From positions 1 to 64,000 of the forward strand of contig OMVY01000010.1 in assembly GCA_900314635.1 (NCBI GenBank): 64,000 nucleotides of DNA. Reading direction: 5' to 3'. This DNA is from an uncultured Methanobrevibacter sp. (GTDB lineage Archaea > Methanobacteriota > Methanobacteria > Methanobacteriales > Methanobacteriaceae). Of this stretch, positions 13,217-21,664 are shown in pieces (the stretch's first letter is position 1; each line of letters opens with the position of its first letter). The translations under genes were made by a program, and so were the position numbers. The notes under the pieces are model-generated. The model was not told where the DNA came from. It made no database searches and worked only from the letters and a program-made list of their open reading frames with translations.

Positions 13217-13250
13217 TCTGTCGGGATGAACCAGAGTTAAGATTTCCAGA
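13217..13250 (+). repeat. Inverted repeat, N-terminal site, silent copy
   Basis: 34 bases starting TCTGTCGGGATGAACC, with an inverted partner at 17293-17326 inside the active hsdS differing at one base (A versus C at position 17). The repeat encodes CRDEPELRFP. Similarity stops sharply upstream of it, as expected for a recombination junction. Confidence 0.9.
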
Positions 13251-13823
13251 ATTTAATGAAAAATGGGAAACTTTAAAATTAGGTGATTTTCTTGAATTTA
13301 TATCAACAAATTCTCTTTCAAGAGCTAAATTAAATTTAGATGATGGAAAAATTAAAAATATTCATTATGGGGATATACATACTAAATTTCCAACAATTGT
13401 AAATGTTGAAAATGAAGAAATTCCTTTTATAAATTTAGATGAAGACACTTCTAAATTTAAAAAAGAACAATTTTGTAAAGAGGGAGACCTTGTAATAGCC
13501 GATGCATCTGAAGATTATGCAGATATTGGGAAAGCAATAGAATTAGTAAATGTTAATATAGATTTAGTTGCAGGTTTGCATACTATCTTAGCAAGAGATA
13601 AATCAAATAAAACAGCTACGGGTTTTAAAGGCTATTTGTTTTTAACGGAGGATTTGAGGAAAAAAATTAAAATTAATGCTAATGGAATTTCTGTTTTAGG
13701 AATTAGTAAAAATAATATTGCTAATTTAGATGTAAAACTACCTTCTAAACAAGAACAAGAAAAAATTTCAAGTTTTCTTCATGCAATTGATAACAAAATT
13801 GAGTTATTGGAAAAGAAACTAGT

Positions 13824-13841
13824 TCTATACCAACAACTCGA
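13824..13841 (+). repeat. Inverted repeat, central site, cassette 1
   Basis: TCTATACCAACAACTCGA, a perfect 18-base inverted match to 14983-15000 in cassette 2. It falls in the conserved helix between TRD1 and TRD2, so inversion between the two copies would exchange TRD2 domains. Confidence 0.9.
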
Positions 13842-14409
13842 AAAAGATGTTAGAAAGAGTATTTTTAATTTTAATGATGAAAAAATCGGATTTAATAAAT
13901 TTTTATTGGGAGAAATTGCAGAAATTAAAAAAGGATTCACTCCATCAACACAAAATGAAGAATTTTGGAATGATGGCAAGTATTTATGGTTAAGTATTGC
14001 AGATATGAATAAAAAATATTTAACTGAAACAAGCAAGAAAATTACTGAAAAAGCTATAAAAAACAGAGCAATTATTCCAAAAAATACTCTTGTAATGAGT
14101 TTTAAACTAACAATTGGGAAATTAGCAATTTTAAAAGAAGATATGTTCACAAATGAGGCAATTGCAAGCTTTAATTGGAAAAATAAAAAAATATCTACAG
14201 AATATATGTATTTTTATTTGAAATCAATAAATATTAAAAAATATGGTTCACAAGCAGCAAAAGGAATAACATTGAATAATGAAACTTTAAATTCTATTCC
14301 CGTATATTTGCCTGATTTAAATAAACAAAAAGAAATAGTTGAAATATTATTATCCTTTAATAATAAAATTGAAATGCTTAAAACTCAATTAACTGCACTA
14401 AATAGATTT

Positions 14410-14472
14410 AAAAAAGGATTATTACAAAAAATGTTTGTTTAAATAAACATTTTTTGAAGTAGACCTTTTTTT
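14410..14472. repeat. Tail-to-tail inverted ends of two hsdS cassettes
   Basis: The last codons of cassette 1 (encoding GLLQKMFV) and of cassette 2 (GLLQKMFI) meet head-on with overlapping TAA stops, forming an imperfect inverted repeat centred near 14441. The same C-terminal sequence ends the active hsdS near 16122. Confidence 0.75.
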
Positions 14473-15000
14473 AATAATTTAAATTCTTTATTAAAATCTT
14501 TTAAAAGATTGATTTTATTTTCTAGACTATTTAATATTAAAACAATATTTTCTTGATTAAAATCCGAAGGGATAGGTAGTTCAACTTCTTTTAAAATAGA
14601 ATAATGTCTTTTATACCCTTCTGGAGAGATATTATAATTTTTTAATGCATAATACAGATATTTCATGTTTGTATTTTCTTTTCTTGATTGTAATAATTTA
14701 ATACCATCACCAGCTACAATAAATGGATAATTAATATATTGCAAATGAGTAGTATGATCTCCAAATAGTATTATAGGGAATATATTACAAAGTTTAGCAG
14801 CATTATCAAAATATCCTGCTTTATCTTTTCCTTGTGTTAAAACAGGAATTTTGCCTTTATCTTTTATTTCACTATTTTTTATTTGAAATCTTTTTGAGGA
14901 GATTACTTTAAAAATTTCATTAACTGTGAAAAATTTGCTATTTAATTCAATATCTTTAAAAAGAATTTTTCTCCATTCTGCCTCGAGTTGTTGGTATAGA
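14439..15000 (-). pseudogene. hsdS: Silent hsdS cassette 2 (second TRD only)
   Basis: Open frame on the minus strand encoding the second half of an HsdS: LYQQLEAEWRKILFKDIELN, then a TRD (ISSKRFQIKNSEIKDKGKIP, GDHTTHLQYINYPFIVAGDG) and the closing helix ending KKGLLQKMFI. It begins at the 18-base central inverted repeat, has no TRD1 and no start codon. The frame stays open to about 15066 without a recognisable domain there. It is a donor of TRD2 sequence for cassette 1 if the intervening segment inverts. The TRD differs from both other second TRDs. Confidence 0.82.
14983..15000 (-). repeat. Inverted repeat, central site, cassette 2
   Basis: Perfect reverse complement of the 18 bases at 13824-13841. 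Together they bound a 1.14 kb segment holding two TRD2 domains in opposite directions. Confidence 0.9.
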
Positions 15001-15067
15001 CATATTAAATAAAGATTAGTGCAGTACTGAAATAAATTATAAATTTTTATTATAAAGACAATTTATT

Positions 15068-16108
15068 ATGTATTATAATAAATTATTTCAAAGATTTTGT
15101 AAAGAGCGAAATATCAAAGAAAGCACTATGAAAGGATATCGCTCTACTTTAAAAAAGTATGAAGGATTTCATAAGAAAACTTTAGATGAACTAATGGAAG
15201 AAGCTATTGAAGATGAGGAAAAGGGAATTCCCCTTAAAGAAAGGAAAATAAAGAAGAGATTATTGGATTATCGAACTTACTTGCTTGATAGTGATATGTC
15301 TCCTAATACATCAAAGACATATTTCTCAAAACTAAAGACCTTTTATTTGCACTTTGAGATTGAACTACCTCATTTGCCTGATGCTAAATACAATAAAATT
15401 TATGAGACTAATTATTTGGATTTGCCAACTAAAGAACATATAACTCAAGCTATAGAAATTTCCACAATTGATTTAAAATCAGTGATTTTGTTCATGTCAA
15501 GTAGTGGAACTGCAAAAGCGGAAACCCTTTCGCTAACAGTTGAGCAATTTATCCAAGGAACTCAAGAATATCATAATGGCGGATCAATTGAGACAATCTT
15601 AGATACTCTAGAAAAACGAAAAAATGTAGTTCCTACTTTTTATTTAAAGCGTATCAAAACAGATAAATATTATTATACTTTCTGCTCTCCAGAAGCAAGC
15701 AGATATATTGTTAAATACTTGAAGACTAGGCAAAATCTGAAATTAGAAGATAAATTATTTGATTTCACTCCTTCACTTCTTTTAACTCGTTTTCAAGAAA
15801 TAAACGACTACTTTAATTGGGGTTTTAAAGGAAAGTATAGATTTTTTAGATCCCACACTCTGAGGAAATTTCATGCATCAAATATTGGTTTAAGTGCTGA
15901 GTATATTGATTCTCTTCAAGGAAGAAGCAAGAATGAAGTTCATGAGACTTATATTAAAACTAATCCAAAAAGATTAAAGGAAATTTATAAGTCTGCAATG
16001 AAGAATGTGATGATTTTTGAGAGTAAACATATAAAAGAAGTGGAAAAACAGGAGTTTAATATTATAATTAATGTATTTTTATCTGGAAAAGAGTATAATA
16101 TTATTTAA
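15068..16108 (+). CDS. Tyrosine recombinase/integrase of the hsd locus
   Basis: 346 residues. An N-terminal SAM-like core-binding domain (residues 1-100) is followed by the catalytic domain. Seen active-site residues: H263-x2-R266 (SHTLRKF), H292 and the nucleophile Y295 (VHETYIK). The first catalytic Arg position reads GTAKAETL, so Lys150 seems to stand where Arg is expected. It lies between silent and active hsdS genes, convergent with the active one, inside the segment that the 34-base repeats would invert. That position suggests it inverts hsdS DNA. No ribosome binding site precedes the ATG; a TATA-like TTATAAATTT about 28 bases upstream fits a leaderless mRNA. Confidence 0.88.
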   Translation: MYYNKLFQRFCKERNIKESTMKGYRSTLKKYEGFHKKTLDELMEEAIEDEEKGIPLKERKIKKRLLDYRTYLLDSDMSPNTSKTYFSKLKTFYLHFEIELPHLPDAKYNKIYETNYLDLPTKEHITQAIEISTIDLKSVILFMSSSGTAKAETLSLTVEQFIQGTQEYHNGGSIETILDTLEKRKNVVPTFYLKRIKTDKYYYTFCSPEASRYIVKYLKTRQNLKLEDKLFDFTPSLLLTRFQEINDYFNWGFKGKYRFFRSHTLRKFHASNIGLSAEYIDSLQGRSKNEVHETYIKTNPKRLKEIYKSAMKNVMIFESKHIKEVEKQEFNIIINVFLSGKEYNII

Positions 16109-16121
16109 CTAAAAAAGATGT

Positions 16122-17378
16122 TTAAATAAACATCTTTTGCAATAAACCTTTTTTAAAGTTAATAATCTCTTGAATTTTCATTTCCATTAAATGCTCTTTA
16201 TTATCGAATTTAAGTAAAAAATCTGCAATATATTTCTGCTTTTGAATATCATAAGGTATTGCTATAGGTGTTTTTCTCAAATCTTTCATCTTAATACTTT
16301 TAAAAGTACTTCCTGTAATATTATTATTAAAATAATGTTGAATTTTATTTGATTTCATCAAACAATATAAAAATTTTGGTTCCAACAAGTTTTTATTAGC
16401 CCTTAGTGAAAATACAGATTCATTTATATTCCAATTTAATGGATCTTCTTTAATTAGATAAACTTCGCCCACACGACCTATACTTGCAAAAATTAAATCA
16501 TCCTTCTTCAAATCAGACCGCTTATTAATCATATTTAATGCATCATCATCTATTTTATCACACTTTTCATCTAAAGTCAATTTTCCATTTTCAAAATTTT
16601 TAATGGTTACATAAAAATTAGTTCCCCCATCATTTAACTTAAAATTTTTTCTAGGGTTTAAACCTGTGGAAAATTTAGTTACAACATCTTCTAGAACTAA
16701 TTCTGTGTATTCAATTTTTAATTTATCAAATGTTTGGATATTAAAAATTTCGGAATAATAATAATCTTTTAAATATAAAATTTTTTCATGTTTCTTTTCC
16801 AATAACCCAATTTTTTTATCAATTGTTAATAAAAAATTCGCTATCTTTTTTTGTTCATTTATATTTGGATAATATAATTCCAAATTCTTTATAATTTTAG
16901 ATGAAAGATTTCCCTGACCTCCTTGCAAATATTTATGCACAATATTCTCTTTTTCTTTTAAAAAATAATTGTATTGGAATACATTATCCATTTCATTATC
17001 AATTTTTAAAACTGCTTGATTTATTGCGCCATCTAATTTTGAAATGGCCACTTCTCCACTTGTCGCTCCATAAAGAGCTAATAATAAATCTCCTTTTTTT
17101 ACTAATTTAGCAGAAGAATTATTAATAGCATCTTCATTTATATATTGTTCTGTTTCTTCAGAATTTATTTCACCAGATTTGATAAATGGAATATTCCCAA
17201 TATAAAAATTCTTATTTGATGTAGAAGGTGTTCCACCAGAATATGTTTTACTAATTTCACCAATTTTTTCTTTTTTCCATTTATCTTTAAACTCTGGAAA
17301 TCTTAACTCGGGTTCATCCCGACAGATATTTTCTTTTTCATTGGTTTTCTCAGAAGAAACAAGTTTTTGCTGTACCAT
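16122..17378 (-). CDS. hsdS: Type I restriction-modification specificity subunit (expressed copy)
   Basis: 418 residues that read one half each of a split DNA target. Order: leader MVQQKLVSSEKTNEKENI, repeat-encoded CRDEPELRFPEF, TRD1 (IGEISKTYSGGTPSTSNKNF to about 180), a conserved helix (ANFLLTIDKKIGLLEKKHEK), TRD2 (LEDVVTKFSTGLNPRKNF to about 390) and the C-terminal helix (INFKKGLLQKMFI). AGGTGG precedes the ATG. It starts eight bases after the hsdM stop, so it is the last gene of an hsdR-hsdM-hsdS operon. The promoter-proximal 18 residues are outside the inverted repeat, so they would stay fixed while the rest is exchanged. Confidence 0.95.
   Translation of the reverse strand: MVQQKLVSSEKTNEKENICRDEPELRFPEFKDKWKKEKIGEISKTYSGGTPSTSNKNFYIGNIPFIKSGEINSEETEQYINEDAINNSSAKLVKKGDLLLALYGATSGEVAISKLDGAINQAVLKIDNEMDNVFQYNYFLKEKENIVHKYLQGGQGNLSSKIIKNLELYYPNINEQKKIANFLLTIDKKIGLLEKKHEKILYLKDYYYSEIFNIQTFDKLKIEYTELVLEDVVTKFSTGLNPRKNFKLNDGGTNFYVTIKNFENGKLTLDEKCDKIDDDALNMINKRSDLKKDDLIFASIGRVGEVYLIKEDPLNWNINESVFSLRANKNLLEPKFLYCLMKSNKIQHYFNNNITGSTFKSIKMKDLRKTPIAIPYDIQKQKYIADFLLKFDNKEHLMEMKIQEIINFKKGLLQKMFI
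17293..17326 (-). repeat. Inverted repeat, N-terminal site, expressed copy
   Basis: Partner of 13217-13250: 33 of 34 bases match in inverted orientation. Inversion between them would flip about 4.1 kb, including the recombinase, and swap the full body of hsdS. Confidence 0.9.
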
Positions 17379-17386
17379 GAAACCAC

Positions 17387-18928
17387 CTAAAATATAGGGG
17401 CTCTTATGCCCAATTCTTCACAATATTTCTTGATTTCCTTATCAATATCTTCCATTTCAATAGCTATTTTTTCAAGCTCATCACAAACTTCATCAAGATC
17501 TATCGGCTCTTCTTCCTCAAAGGTATCAACATATCTTGGAATATTGAGATTGAAATCATTCTCTTTTATTTCTTCCAAAGTGGCTTTATGAGAATACTTT
17601 TCAATTTCTTCTCTGTTTTTGTAAGTGTTGACTATTTTTTCAATATCCTCTTCTCTTAACTTGTTTTGATTTTTAACCTTTTCAAAGCCTTTGGAAGCAT
17701 CAATGAATAAAACATCCTGATCTTCTTCTCTGCATTTCTTAAAGATTAAAATGCAGGTTGGAATGCTTGTACCATAGAAAATATTGGCTGGAAGACCAAT
17801 AACCGCATCAAGATAATTCTTTTCATCTACAAGATATTCTCTTATTGTTCCTTCTGCAGCTCCCCTGAAAAGAACTCCATGAGGCAATACGATTCCCATA
17901 GTTCCATTTTCATCCAAATGATGAATCATGTGTTGTACAAAAGCATAGTCCGCCTTTGATTTGGGAGCCAGCCTTCCATATGCACTGAATCTTTCATCAT
18001 CAAGGAATGAACTGTCAGAAGACCATTTAGCAGAGAACGGTGGATTGGCAACGATGGCTTCAAACTTCATATCCTTATGCTGAGGGTGTTCTAGAGTATC
18101 GCCTTGCTTAATATCAAAATCACTATATTTGACTCCATGGAGAATCATATTCATTCTAGCGAGGTTGTAGGTGGTTTGATTTAATTCCTGACCATAAAAA
18201 TCACCAACTTCACATTCACGAGCAACCCTTAAAAGCAAGGACCCAGAACCACAAGTAGGATCATAAACAGTTTTTAACCTAGTTTTTCCTAAAGTAACAA
18301 TTTTTGCTAAAATTTTAGAAACCTCTTGAGGAGTATAGAATTCCCCTGCTTTCTTACCTGCTTCTGAAGCAAATTGGCTTATTAAATATTCATAAGCATC
18401 TCCAAGAATATCAGCTTCCGCATCTTCAATCTTAAAGTCAATATCATTTAAAGTCAGAATCACTTTGGAAATTAAATTATTCTTTTCATTATTACTTGAG
18501 CCTAATTTGGAAGAGTTTAAATCCACATCCTCAAAAAGATTGCTGAAATCATCCTGGCTTTTAGTGTTCATTGAGGAATTACTGATATAATTTAATGACT
18601 TGATTAAATCATCAAGAATGAACTCACCGACCTCTGCTTTTTTTACAACAGTAGAAAACAGGTATTCTGGTTCAATGAAATAACCTAGATATCCTATGCT
18701 GTCTTCTTTTAAGTCAGGATTGTATTCATCCAATTTCCAAGCATCCTCAAATGTGATTCCATCTTCCTTTAATTCATTATCAATGTATAATTCTAATTTT
18801 TCTGACAGATAACGATAAAATATAAAACCTAAAATATAGTTCTTATATTCATTAGCATCCATATTCCCTCTTAAGAGATCTGCTATAGACCATAACTTAC
18901 TTTCCAAACTATTTTGATAATTAGACAT
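17387..18928 (-). CDS. hsdM: Type I restriction-modification methyltransferase subunit
   Basis: Adds a methyl group to N6 of adenine in the sequence chosen by HsdS. An N-terminal helical domain (residues 8-160) precedes the SAM-binding motif I DPTCGSGSLLL (224-234) and the catalytic motif NPPF (296-299). The reading frame has a TTG one codon earlier; the ATG at 18928 behind AGGTGGG is preferred. The stop is eight bases before hsdS and the gene starts about a dozen bases after hsdR, a tight operon. About 513 residues, normal for the family. Confidence 0.97.
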   Translation of the reverse strand: MSNYQNSLESKLWSIADLLRGNMDANEYKNYILGFIFYRYLSEKLELYIDNELKEDGITFEDAWKLDEYNPDLKEDSIGYLGYFIEPEYLFSTVVKKAEVGEFILDDLIKSLNYISNSSMNTKSQDDFSNLFEDVDLNSSKLGSSNNEKNNLISKVILTLNDIDFKIEDAEADILGDAYEYLISQFASEAGKKAGEFYTPQEVSKILAKIVTLGKTRLKTVYDPTCGSGSLLLRVARECEVGDFYGQELNQTTYNLARMNMILHGVKYSDFDIKQGDTLEHPQHKDMKFEAIVANPPFSAKWSSDSSFLDDERFSAYGRLAPKSKADYAFVQHMIHHLDENGTMGIVLPHGVLFRGAAEGTIREYLVDEKNYLDAVIGLPANIFYGTSIPTCILIFKKCREEDQDVLFIDASKGFEKVKNQNKLREEDIEKIVNTYKNREEIEKYSHKATLEEIKENDFNLNIPRYVDTFEEEEPIDLDEVCDELEKIAIEMEDIDKEIKKYCEELGIRAPIF

Positions 18929-18940
18929 CAACCCACCTTT

Positions 18941-21664
18941 TTAATAATTGAATTTTTCAAATAAATCAGTTATTCTGTTCTTTATTGTTTTCACTTTGTT
19001 TTTCCTTGCCTTATATCTTAATGTGTCCTTAAATGAAGCTTTTATTAAATCATCATCAAGTTTTCCAGAGAATTCATATTTTTCAAAGAATTTACGAGCC
19101 ATGGCCTCATCCAGGTTTTCCTCATCGATGATATTGCAGATTTCCGCTCTTCTTTCAGTTCTCATAAACTCTTCAAAAGCATCTCCAACAGTAGTCTGTT
19201 TAGTATCAATATTACCCAGTTTTTCATTAATAAATTTCTCAATAAGGTCAATCTTACTACGTAATTGCTGGGTTTCATTAACAAGTTTCAAGATTCTTTT
19301 CTTGTCATGTTCAAAACTAGTGCTACTGAAATCCAAGTCTTCCATCAGTTTGATAATGTAATCAACATTGATTTGATCATTTCTCAAAAGCTCAAGTTCA
19401 AAATCAATATCATCCAAAATGGAATCAGGACCCTCTCCCTCAGTAACTAAATCATCATATATTTTAAAGTAAACGCTTTTATAGTCATTGAATTCCTGTT
19501 CAGTCATGTCCAGGTTGTCAAATGTGAATTCCGTGAAAATATCTAACTTGTTCTTTATCCTTGACAATTCTCTGAAATTCAGAACAAAAGTCTCCTTATC
19601 CGTTTCACTTTGTAAATTCATTGCCTCTTCAACAGTTTCGACTAACTTATGTAGCTCTTTAACTGCTTCATTGAATTTATCTACAAAGAATTCGTAAGGA
19701 GGAATTATAATATCTTCACAATTATCTGTCATTGAGAATAAAGCAATTGCTCTGTCAGTATCCTCTTTAATGTCTCTGAAACATACAATATTTCCTTGCG
19801 ATTTTCTCATATTGATTACACGATTAGTCCTTGAAAACGCTTGCAGGAGAGTATGGTATTTTAAGTCCTTATCAACATACAGAGTATTTAGCATAGGACT
19901 ATCGAAACCGGTTAAAAACATGTCCACAACAAGCAACAAGTCAATTTCTCTGTTTTTCATTCTTTTGGATACATCAGCATGATATCCTTTAAAGTCATCA
20001 GTACTGAAATTAGTATCAAACATTTCATTATAGTCCTTAATATAGGAATCTAATAAATCCTGTGAAAGTTCCTTTTCAGAGGAATCCTCATTAACTTTAT
20101 AAGTGAAGATTGTAGCTATTTTTAAATCGTGCTTTGCTTCTTTGAAGAGTTTGTAGTATTTATGAATTACTCCACCTCTTGATACTGTAAACATTGCATT
20201 GAATTCACGATTCTTAGTCTTAGTGCTGTAACTGTTTATCACATAATCCACAATTGGTTTTAATCTTTTATCAGATTCTAAAAATTCCTTAGTGTCGATT
20301 CCAGTGACTTCCTTGTCAGGCTTGTTTTTGATTTTTGCTCCTCCAAAGTAATCAACTGAAAATCCTAAAACGTTTCCATCTGCAATTGCATCTTTAATGA
20401 CATATTCATGAAGCCTTTTTCCAAAAATGCTTTTGGTGGTTTTGAATCCATCAGAATTTACGGCAAAAATTGGAGTTCCTGTGAATCCAAAGGACAGGAC
20501 ATTTGTAAAGAAATCAACAATGGACTGGTGCATCTCACCAAATTGACTTCTATGGCATTCATCAAAAATAAGAATGATGTTTTTATCTTTAATGCTTTGA
20601 AGCTTTTTTTGATCTCCACGGGTTTTTACAGCCTTAGATAACTTTTGTATTGTGGTAGTCACCAATTTACCTTTTCCTTGGGTGGTTAAATTTTTTATCA
20701 AAGCTCCTGTGTGCTCTGTTACATTAACACAACCATCACAGAAACTGTTGAACTCCTTGTTTGTTTGAATGTCAAGATCTCTTCTGTCCACTACAAAAAT
20801 TACTTTATATATAGATTCCTCTTCTGCAAGCAGCTGGCTTACTTTGTATGATGTTAAGGTCTTTCCACTACCTGTTGTGTGCCATACATAGCCATTTTGC
20901 TTATTTTCCAAAGCCTGTTCTATAACCGCTTCGACAGCATATTTCTGATAAGCCCTTAAGATCATCAGTTTTTTAGAGGATTCATTTAAAACCATGTATT
21001 TGGAAATCATTTTTGCAAGATTGCATTTTTCAAAAAAGGTATCTGTAAAATCTTCCAATGAGTAAATATTGTTGTTTTCCTTGTCTTTCCAGTAGAATGT
21101 GAATTCAAATTTAAGCTCGTTTGGTCTTCCATTAGCAAAATATTTGGACTCCACACCATTGCTGATTACAAAAATCTGAATGAAATTAAATAAACCTTTA
21201 TAAGAGTGAAGTTTATACCTATTGATTTGATTAAATGCCTCTTTTATATTCATTCCTCTTCTCTTAAGTTCCACTTGAACAAGAGGCAATCCATTGATAA
21301 GCAAAGTTACATCATAACGATTCTTATGCAAGCCTTCCATTTTAACCTGGTTGGTAACTTGAAAAATATTCTTACACCAATCTTTCTCATTGATGAATTT
21401 GATGAAAAATGATTCTTCTTCCCTTTCAATGAAAAAATGGTCTCTTAATTTTTTAGCTTTGTCAAATATTGTTCCAGAATCCAAATATTGAAGAACCCTG
21501 TTAAATTCTTCATCAGTTAAATCACAACGATTCAACTTTTCAAGCTGCACTTTAAAATTAGCATTTAGCTCTTCTTCATTTTTAATATTGATTTTTTGAT
21601 AACCGTTTTCAGATAGCCTATCAATTAATTTGGCTTCTAAAACTGCTTCACTTTCCACTGACAT
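18941..21664 (-). CDS. hsdR: Type I restriction-modification endonuclease/translocase subunit
   Basis: 907 residues. The N-terminal nuclease domain has the PD-(D/E)xK pattern (Asp118 in RYDVTLLI, then QVELK at 130-134). The superfamily 2 helicase motor follows with Walker A TGSGKT (264-269), the DECH box (FDECHRSQ, about 350) and GFTGTP. A C-terminal helical region of about 250 residues binds the rest of the complex. AGGGG precedes the ATG. First gene of the hsd operon; promoter in the 200 AT-rich bases upstream. No frameshift or missing motif, so restriction is expected to be active. Confidence 0.96.
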   Translation of the reverse strand: MSVESEAVLEAKLIDRLSENGYQKINIKNEEELNANFKVQLEKLNRCDLTDEEFNRVLQYLDSGTIFDKAKKLRDHFFIEREEESFFIKFINEKDWCKNIFQVTNQVKMEGLHKNRYDVTLLINGLPLVQVELKRRGMNIKEAFNQINRYKLHSYKGLFNFIQIFVISNGVESKYFANGRPNELKFEFTFYWKDKENNNIYSLEDFTDTFFEKCNLAKMISKYMVLNESSKKLMILRAYQKYAVEAVIEQALENKQNGYVWHTTGSGKTLTSYKVSQLLAEEESIYKVIFVVDRRDLDIQTNKEFNSFCDGCVNVTEHTGALIKNLTTQGKGKLVTTTIQKLSKAVKTRGDQKKLQSIKDKNIILIFDECHRSQFGEMHQSIVDFFTNVLSFGFTGTPIFAVNSDGFKTTKSIFGKRLHEYVIKDAIADGNVLGFSVDYFGGAKIKNKPDKEVTGIDTKEFLESDKRLKPIVDYVINSYSTKTKNREFNAMFTVSRGGVIHKYYKLFKEAKHDLKIATIFTYKVNEDSSEKELSQDLLDSYIKDYNEMFDTNFSTDDFKGYHADVSKRMKNREIDLLLVVDMFLTGFDSPMLNTLYVDKDLKYHTLLQAFSRTNRVINMRKSQGNIVCFRDIKEDTDRAIALFSMTDNCEDIIIPPYEFFVDKFNEAVKELHKLVETVEEAMNLQSETDKETFVLNFRELSRIKNKLDIFTEFTFDNLDMTEQEFNDYKSVYFKIYDDLVTEGEGPDSILDDIDFELELLRNDQINVDYIIKLMEDLDFSSTSFEHDKKRILKLVNETQQLRSKIDLIEKFINEKLGNIDTKQTTVGDAFEEFMRTERRAEICNIIDEENLDEAMARKFFEKYEFSGKLDDDLIKASFKDTLRYKARKNKVKTIKNRITDLFEKFNY

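What the first reader, a model, noticed from the sequence alone, without database searches (positions are those of the whole stretch)
13217..17326. 34-base inverted repeat at the front of active and silent hsdS
33 of 34 bases match in inverted orientation, and similarity breaks off exactly upstream of the repeat in the silent copy. The repeat encodes residues just before TRD1, so inversion keeps the frame, leaves promoter and first 18 residues fixed, and replaces the rest of hsdS. The flipped 4.1 kb includes the recombinase itself.
Basis: seen in the sequence. Interest (0 to 1): 0.7.

Follow-up and report, generated by a model that had tools for sequence, protein, structure and literature searches.

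The report
Six-way invertible hsdS switch, archaeon
A gut methanogen carries a self-contained genetic switch that can flip DNA segments to give its restriction-modification enzyme six possible target specificities, the same kind of switch known from pneumococcus but here in an archaeon, and a sister species carries a version of the gene joined at the predicted flip points.

Summary
A 34-bp inverted repeat (33/34) lies at 13217-13250 / 17293-17326, at the start of a silent and an active hsdS. IR2 (34/36) joins the centres of the same two genes. IR3 (18/18) joins the silent gene to a third, half hsdS. Inverting any of them keeps the frame; together they reach eight arrangements and exactly six full-length HsdS proteins (2 TRD1 x 3 TRD2), the logic of the pneumococcal SpnIII/Spn556II switch. 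A XerA-like tyrosine recombinase lies inside the cassette. The best evidence beyond anatomy is a same-genus species (HsdM 85% identical): its active hsdS has the window's fixed 5' end but then the window's silent TRD1, and the homology breaks at IR1 and IR2. The two IR1 arms resemble each other (33/34) more than the sister's copy (29-30/34), so they were exchanged or homogenised recently. Similar cassettes lie in several Methanobacteriaceae genomes. Inversion within a living population is not shown; no reads were available. Known kind, archaeal member; archaeal examples have been mentioned in print only generically. In passing: the same recombinase family sits beside inverted BREX pglX copies and a viral tail-fibre-like shufflon.

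The parts
13217..13250 (+). IR1 arm in silent hsdS-b (start of TRD1; codons CRDEPELRFPE)
   Evidence: 33/34 with 17293-17326 reversed; 0 expected
17293..17326 (-). IR1 arm in active hsdS-a, codons 19 onward
13784..13819 (+). IR2 arm in silent hsdS-b, central conserved region (IDNKIELLEKK)
   Evidence: 34/36 with 16790-16825 reversed
16790..16825 (-). IR2 arm in active hsdS-a, central conserved region
13824..13841 (+). IR3 arm in silent hsdS-b, just before TRD2b (TCTATACCAACAACTCGA)
   Evidence: 18/18 with 14983-15000 reversed
14983..15000 (-). IR3 arm in half gene hsdS-c, just before TRD2c
13217..14442 (+). silent hsdS-b (TRD1b + TRD2b), no start codon, in-frame stop upstream
   Evidence: two PF01420 matches; translation
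14439..15000 (-). silent half gene hsdS-c (TRD2c only)
   Evidence: PF01420 match 14484-14939; translation
15068..16108 (+). tyrosine recombinase (XerA-like), inside the IR1 and IR2 segments
   Evidence: integrase SAM-like domain, XerA_Arch 34.7 bits, fold match to XerA 5hxy, conserved K/R, K, HxLR, Y motifs
16122..17378 (-). active hsdS-a (TRD1a + TRD2a), 418 aa, last gene of hsdRMS
   Evidence: PF01420 2e-39; best solved relatives are HsdS subunits
17387..18931 (-). hsdM
   Evidence: TIGR00497 460.8 bits, over its cut-off
18941..21664 (-). hsdR
   Evidence: TIGR00348 498.4 bits, over its cut-off; EcoR124_C domain

Best explanation
[quoted passage not shown] The operon hsdR-hsdM-hsdS ends in one expressed hsdS; beyond it lie a recombinase gene and startless hsdS copies (one full, one half) in inverted positions. 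Inversion across IR1 swaps the whole variable part of HsdS, across IR2 the second TRD, and across IR3 exchanges the two reserve TRD2s, giving six HsdS proteins in frame (shown in silico). The resident tyrosine recombinase most likely catalyses at least one of these inversions (inferred). The result would be a population mixed in DNA methylation and restriction specificity, for defence against viruses and perhaps gene regulation (inferred).
For: Three inverted repeats at homologous points of hsdS. All reachable inversions give open, full-length HsdS: 8 configurations, 6 proteins of 384-440 aa. Sister species G015 (HsdM 85%) has the window's silent TRD1b (85%) joined to the window's active 5' end, with breaks at IR1 and IR2. 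IR1 arms agree with each other 33/34 but with the sister's copy only 29-30/34, and share a rare CGG codon (2.7% of Arg codons). Similar cassettes (active hsdS, recombinase, startless inverted hsdS copies, where visible beginning near the same LRF motif) occur in L094, L112, L114, L115, L116 and L053. Contigs end within 1 kb on the hsdS side of hsdM in 9 of 35 cases against 0 of 35 on the other side, as expected if hsdS is repeated or heterogeneous.
Against: No read or second isolate of the same species shows a flipped junction; the genome is a 36-contig draft. The sister comparison could reflect slow domain exchange rather than switching, and the sister's second TRD is none of the three here and its contig ends there. 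The recombinase has a Lys near the canonical first catalytic Arg position and no solved sequence relative. IR2 is AT-rich and in a conserved coil, so part of its identity may be ordinary conservation.
Confidence: 0.85

Rival explanations
1. The repeats recombine, but by general homologous recombination or gene conversion; the recombinase is a bystander or acts on one repeat only.
For: In pneumococcus PsrA is needed only for the 15-bp IR1 inversion; inversions at the two longer repeats do not need it (PMC4948785). Related loci L092, L093, L104 and L109 carry several hsdS copies, some in inverted orientation, with no recombinase found in the fetched stretch. The recombinase is frameshifted in L112, although its TRD1 copies are identical over 578 bp.
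Against: The repeats here are short (18-36 bp), and a recombinase lies in the cassette in six related loci.
Confidence: 0.3
2. Ordinary conservation: HsdS N-termini and central coils are conserved, and the silent copies are decaying duplicates that no longer move.
For: The ELRFPEF and KIELLEKK peptides recur in many HsdS of the family.
Against: IR1 includes a rare codon and 10 of 12 identical codons (rough probability 8e-5); arms are closer to each other than to the sister's copy; a homologue of the silent TRD1 is in the active position in the sister; the silent copies here keep full open frames.
Confidence: 0.06
3. Slow evolutionary TRD exchange (domain shuffling between copies, strains or species) without population-level phase variation.
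For: TRDs related to those of the window occur in other combinations and even other positions in related loci. The sister evidence is between species.
Against: A cassette with its own recombinase, three frame-preserving repeats and startless reserve genes is not needed for that; known systems of this anatomy switch within cultures (PMC4948785).
Confidence: 0.15

Closest known systems
SpnIII / Spn556II (ivr/cod) locus of Streptococcus pneumoniae
   Same: Three hsdS genes, three inverted-repeat pairs, eight arrangements, six HsdS proteins, a tyrosine recombinase in the locus (PMC4948785, PMC7394358).
   Different: Archaeal host; repeats of 34, 36 and 18 bp instead of 298, 85 and 15; here the active gene carries only two of the three repeats at present; recombinase resembles archaeal XerA; relation to PsrA/CreX was not tested; no switching shown.
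Inverting type I R-M loci found by the REBASE survey (S. suis, E. faecalis, A. pleuropneumoniae, M. haemolytica)
   Same: Duplicated inverted hsdS with inverted repeats, recombinase in several (PMC7394358).
   Different: The survey's main text names no archaeon; the S. suis one is four-way.
Mycoplasma pulmonis hsd inversions
   Same: hsdS recombination cited as well characterised in PMC4948785.
   Different: From my own knowledge, a different locus layout; not compared here.
XerA-type archaeal tyrosine recombinases
   Same: Best fold matches 5hxy and 4a8e; NCBIfam XerA_Arch partial match.
   Different: 34.7 bits against a cut-off of 220, so not XerA itself; linked to variable loci, not shown to act at dif.

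Membership tests
Type I restriction-modification system | hsdR, hsdM and hsdS adjacent, with family matches | tested here: met
   TIGR00348 and TIGR00497 over cut-off; PF01420 twice in HsdS
Inverting (SpnIII-like) hsdS switch | more than one hsdS with different TRDs, some inverted and not expressible in place | tested here: met
Inverting (SpnIII-like) hsdS switch | inverted repeats placed so that inversion keeps frame | tested here: met
   three pairs, six full-length products
Inverting (SpnIII-like) hsdS switch | recombinase encoded in the locus | tested here: met
   tyrosine recombinase at 15068-16108
Inverting (SpnIII-like) hsdS switch | alternative arrangements observed in nature | tested here: inconclusive
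   seen between sister species, not within one strain
Inverting (SpnIII-like) hsdS switch | recombinase homologous to PsrA/CreX | not tested
   no PsrA sequence was compared; no solved-structure sequence match
Phasevarion | switch changes methylome and expression of many genes | not testable with these tools
   needs methylome and transcriptome data
Tyrosine recombinase | conserved catalytic residues and fold | tested here: met
   HxLR and Tyr invariant, Lys in the hairpin invariant, Lys or Arg near the Arg I position; fold match to XerA/Cre, though the model is of moderate confidence, pTM 0.56
XerA (NF040815) | score over the curated cut-off | tested here: not met
   34.7 against 220 bits

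The most novel reading that the evidence does not exclude
Methanobacteriaceae and their viruses share one family of XerA-like recombinases that works as a general diversity generator: it flips hsdS cassettes, BREX pglX copies and viral tail-fibre-like cassettes, and perhaps surface-protein loci, making these methanogens phase-variable for defence and giving archaea their first phasevarion.
Probability: 0.4. Interest if true: 0.7.

Novelty: new member of a known kind. Interest (0 to 1): 0.5.

Why it matters
Inversion-driven switching of type I R-M specificity is well studied in bacteria but archaeal cases have, in the papers I could read, only been mentioned in general terms (PMC4948785), and a read-based scan of six archaea found no inversions (PMC5903667). 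This locus gives a concrete, testable archaeal case with all parts defined, relatives in several Methanobacteriaceae genera, and a natural exchange between sister species. If it switches, gut and rumen methanogens hedge against viruses, and possibly vary gene expression, in the way pneumococci do.

Tried and rejected
Exact IR1 search in viral contigs gave one hit in an unrelated contig, judged chance. The sister G015 assembly holds no further part of the cassette. Unbiased motif search over rec-linked inverted repeats gave ATACCAA in three loci (window IR3, L114, L168; also present in the L112 repeat), not significant after allowing for all 7-mers. Recombinase has no sequence match in the PDB. 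Literature searches for Methanobrevibacter with hsdS inversion, invertons or phase-variable R-M gave no relevant paper. The idea that the recombinase family is tied to hsdS alone was rejected: its own-genome paralogues and many relatives sit elsewhere.

Full report
WHAT IS THERE. The window lies in a draft archaeal genome (2.29 Mb, 36 contigs); relatives found by its recombinase are Methanobrevibacter and Methanosphaera. On the minus strand runs hsdR (18941-21664), hsdM (17387-18931) and hsdS-a (16122-17378), with gaps of about ten bases, so hsdS is probably read with hsdRM. Families are clear: HsdR TIGR00348 and HsdM TIGR00497 over their cut-offs, HsdS two PF01420 domains.

Beyond hsdS-a lie a tyrosine recombinase (15068-16108, +), a half hsdS (hsdS-c, 14439-15000, -, one TRD) and a full but startless hsdS (hsdS-b, 13217-14442, +, two TRDs). 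hsdS-b has an in-frame stop just before the repeat and no start codon there.

THE REPEATS. There are two more. IR2 (34/36) joins the central conserved regions of hsdS-a and hsdS-b. IR3 (18/18) joins the point just before TRD2 in hsdS-b and hsdS-c. All three sit at the borders of the target recognition domains.

IN-SILICO TEST. Inverting at each repeat, alone and in series, reaches eight arrangements and exactly six distinct HsdS proteins, all open and full length (384-440 aa): TRD1 a or b combined with TRD2 a, b or c. This is the count reported for the pneumococcal locus: eight arrangements from the inversions and six alternate HsdS proteins (PMC4948785, PMC7394358).

EVIDENCE BEYOND ANATOMY. 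(1) In a same-genus species, G015, HsdM is 85% identical. Its active hsdS starts with the window's active 5' end (MVQ...SSEKTN) but from IR1 on follows the window's silent TRD1b (85% aa) as far as IR2, then has a different TRD2. BLAST on the whole G015 genome breaks at window 13221 and 13822, next to IR1 and the end of IR2. (2) The two IR1 arms agree 33/34 with each other but 29/34 and 30/34 with the sister's copy: they have been exchanged or homogenised since the species split. They share a rare CGG codon, and 10 of 12 codons are identical. (3) Cassettes of the same plan occur in L094, L112, L114, L115, L116 and L053; where the start of a silent copy is visible it lacks a start codon and begins near the same LRF/LRY motif. 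L112, a single-contig genome of 1,767,403 bases (the size I recall for Methanosphaera stadtmanae DSM 3091), has TRD1 identical over 578 bp in inverted copies, with a frameshifted recombinase. (4) Assemblies break within 1 kb on the hsdS side of hsdM in 9 of 35 cases, and in none on the other side.

THE RECOMBINASE. Pfam sees only the integrase N-terminal domain in this protein; one relative also matches the catalytic domain family. The fold model (mean pLDDT 78, pTM 0.56) matches XerA and Cre. HxLR, the hairpin Lys and the final Tyr are conserved; the Arg I region reads SSGTAKAE, with Lys (Arg in one relative). It is not XerA by NCBIfam's cut-off. A tree does not group hsdS-linked members as one clade; the BREX-linked ones form one.

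MECHANISM. Shown: anatomy, frames, six products, between-species exchange at IR1 and IR2. Inferred: inversion within populations, catalysis by the resident enzyme (for which repeat is open; in pneumococcus PsrA serves only the 15-bp repeat), and changed methylation and restriction specificity.

NOVELTY. Known kind, archaeal member. Li et al. [quoted passage not shown] the REBASE survey's main text has no archaeal mention; the archaeal R-M survey has no word on inversion in its main text. I found no paper on this locus, within a library that lacks most subscription journals.

Noticed in passing
L171 265-6001 and 8001-9038 (IMGVR_UViG_3300028048_001915): A methanogen virus contig (pseudomurein endoisopeptidase-like gene, separate integrase) has a tail-fibre-like ORF followed by about eight forward and two inverted ~450-bp cassettes, each opening with a repeat like GTGAAAGATAmCAATAAC, near a recombinase of the same family (68%): a shufflon-like receptor-binding array.
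   Followed up: partly
L038 7013-13074; also L039, L041: The closest recombinase homologues (about 80%) sit beside BREX pglX; in L038 a full pglX faces an inverted partial pglX with repeats of 103/116, 64/68 and 58/69. Suggests invertible pglX in archaea.
   Followed up: partly
L056 9366-14091, L057 9490-12801 (own genome, other contigs): Two paralogous recombinases (about 55-61%) lie just upstream of Ig-domain surface proteins; no clear hsdS-like repeat pair was found there.
   Followed up: partly
L112 10418-14440: In a 1.77-Mb single-contig genome the inverted TRD1 copies are identical over 578 bp while the recombinase is frameshifted, so the locus may be locked or the frameshift may be a sequencing error.
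   Followed up: no
window 13824-13841, L112 12648-12679, L114 8938-8967, L168 11220-11270: ATACCAA recurs in the inverted repeats of recombinase-linked loci; a weak candidate for the crossover core.
   Followed up: partly
L092, L093, L104, L109: Related hsdRM loci carry arrays of several hsdS copies, in L092, L104 and L109 partly inverted, with repeats at TRD borders in those examined (L104, L109) but no recombinase found in the stretch fetched.
   Followed up: no
L109 3407-4621, L094 5027-6759, L096 1287-1844: TRDs related to window TRD1a, TRD1b and TRD2b occur in other combinations and in the other TRD position, pointing to domain movement between positions.
   Followed up: partly
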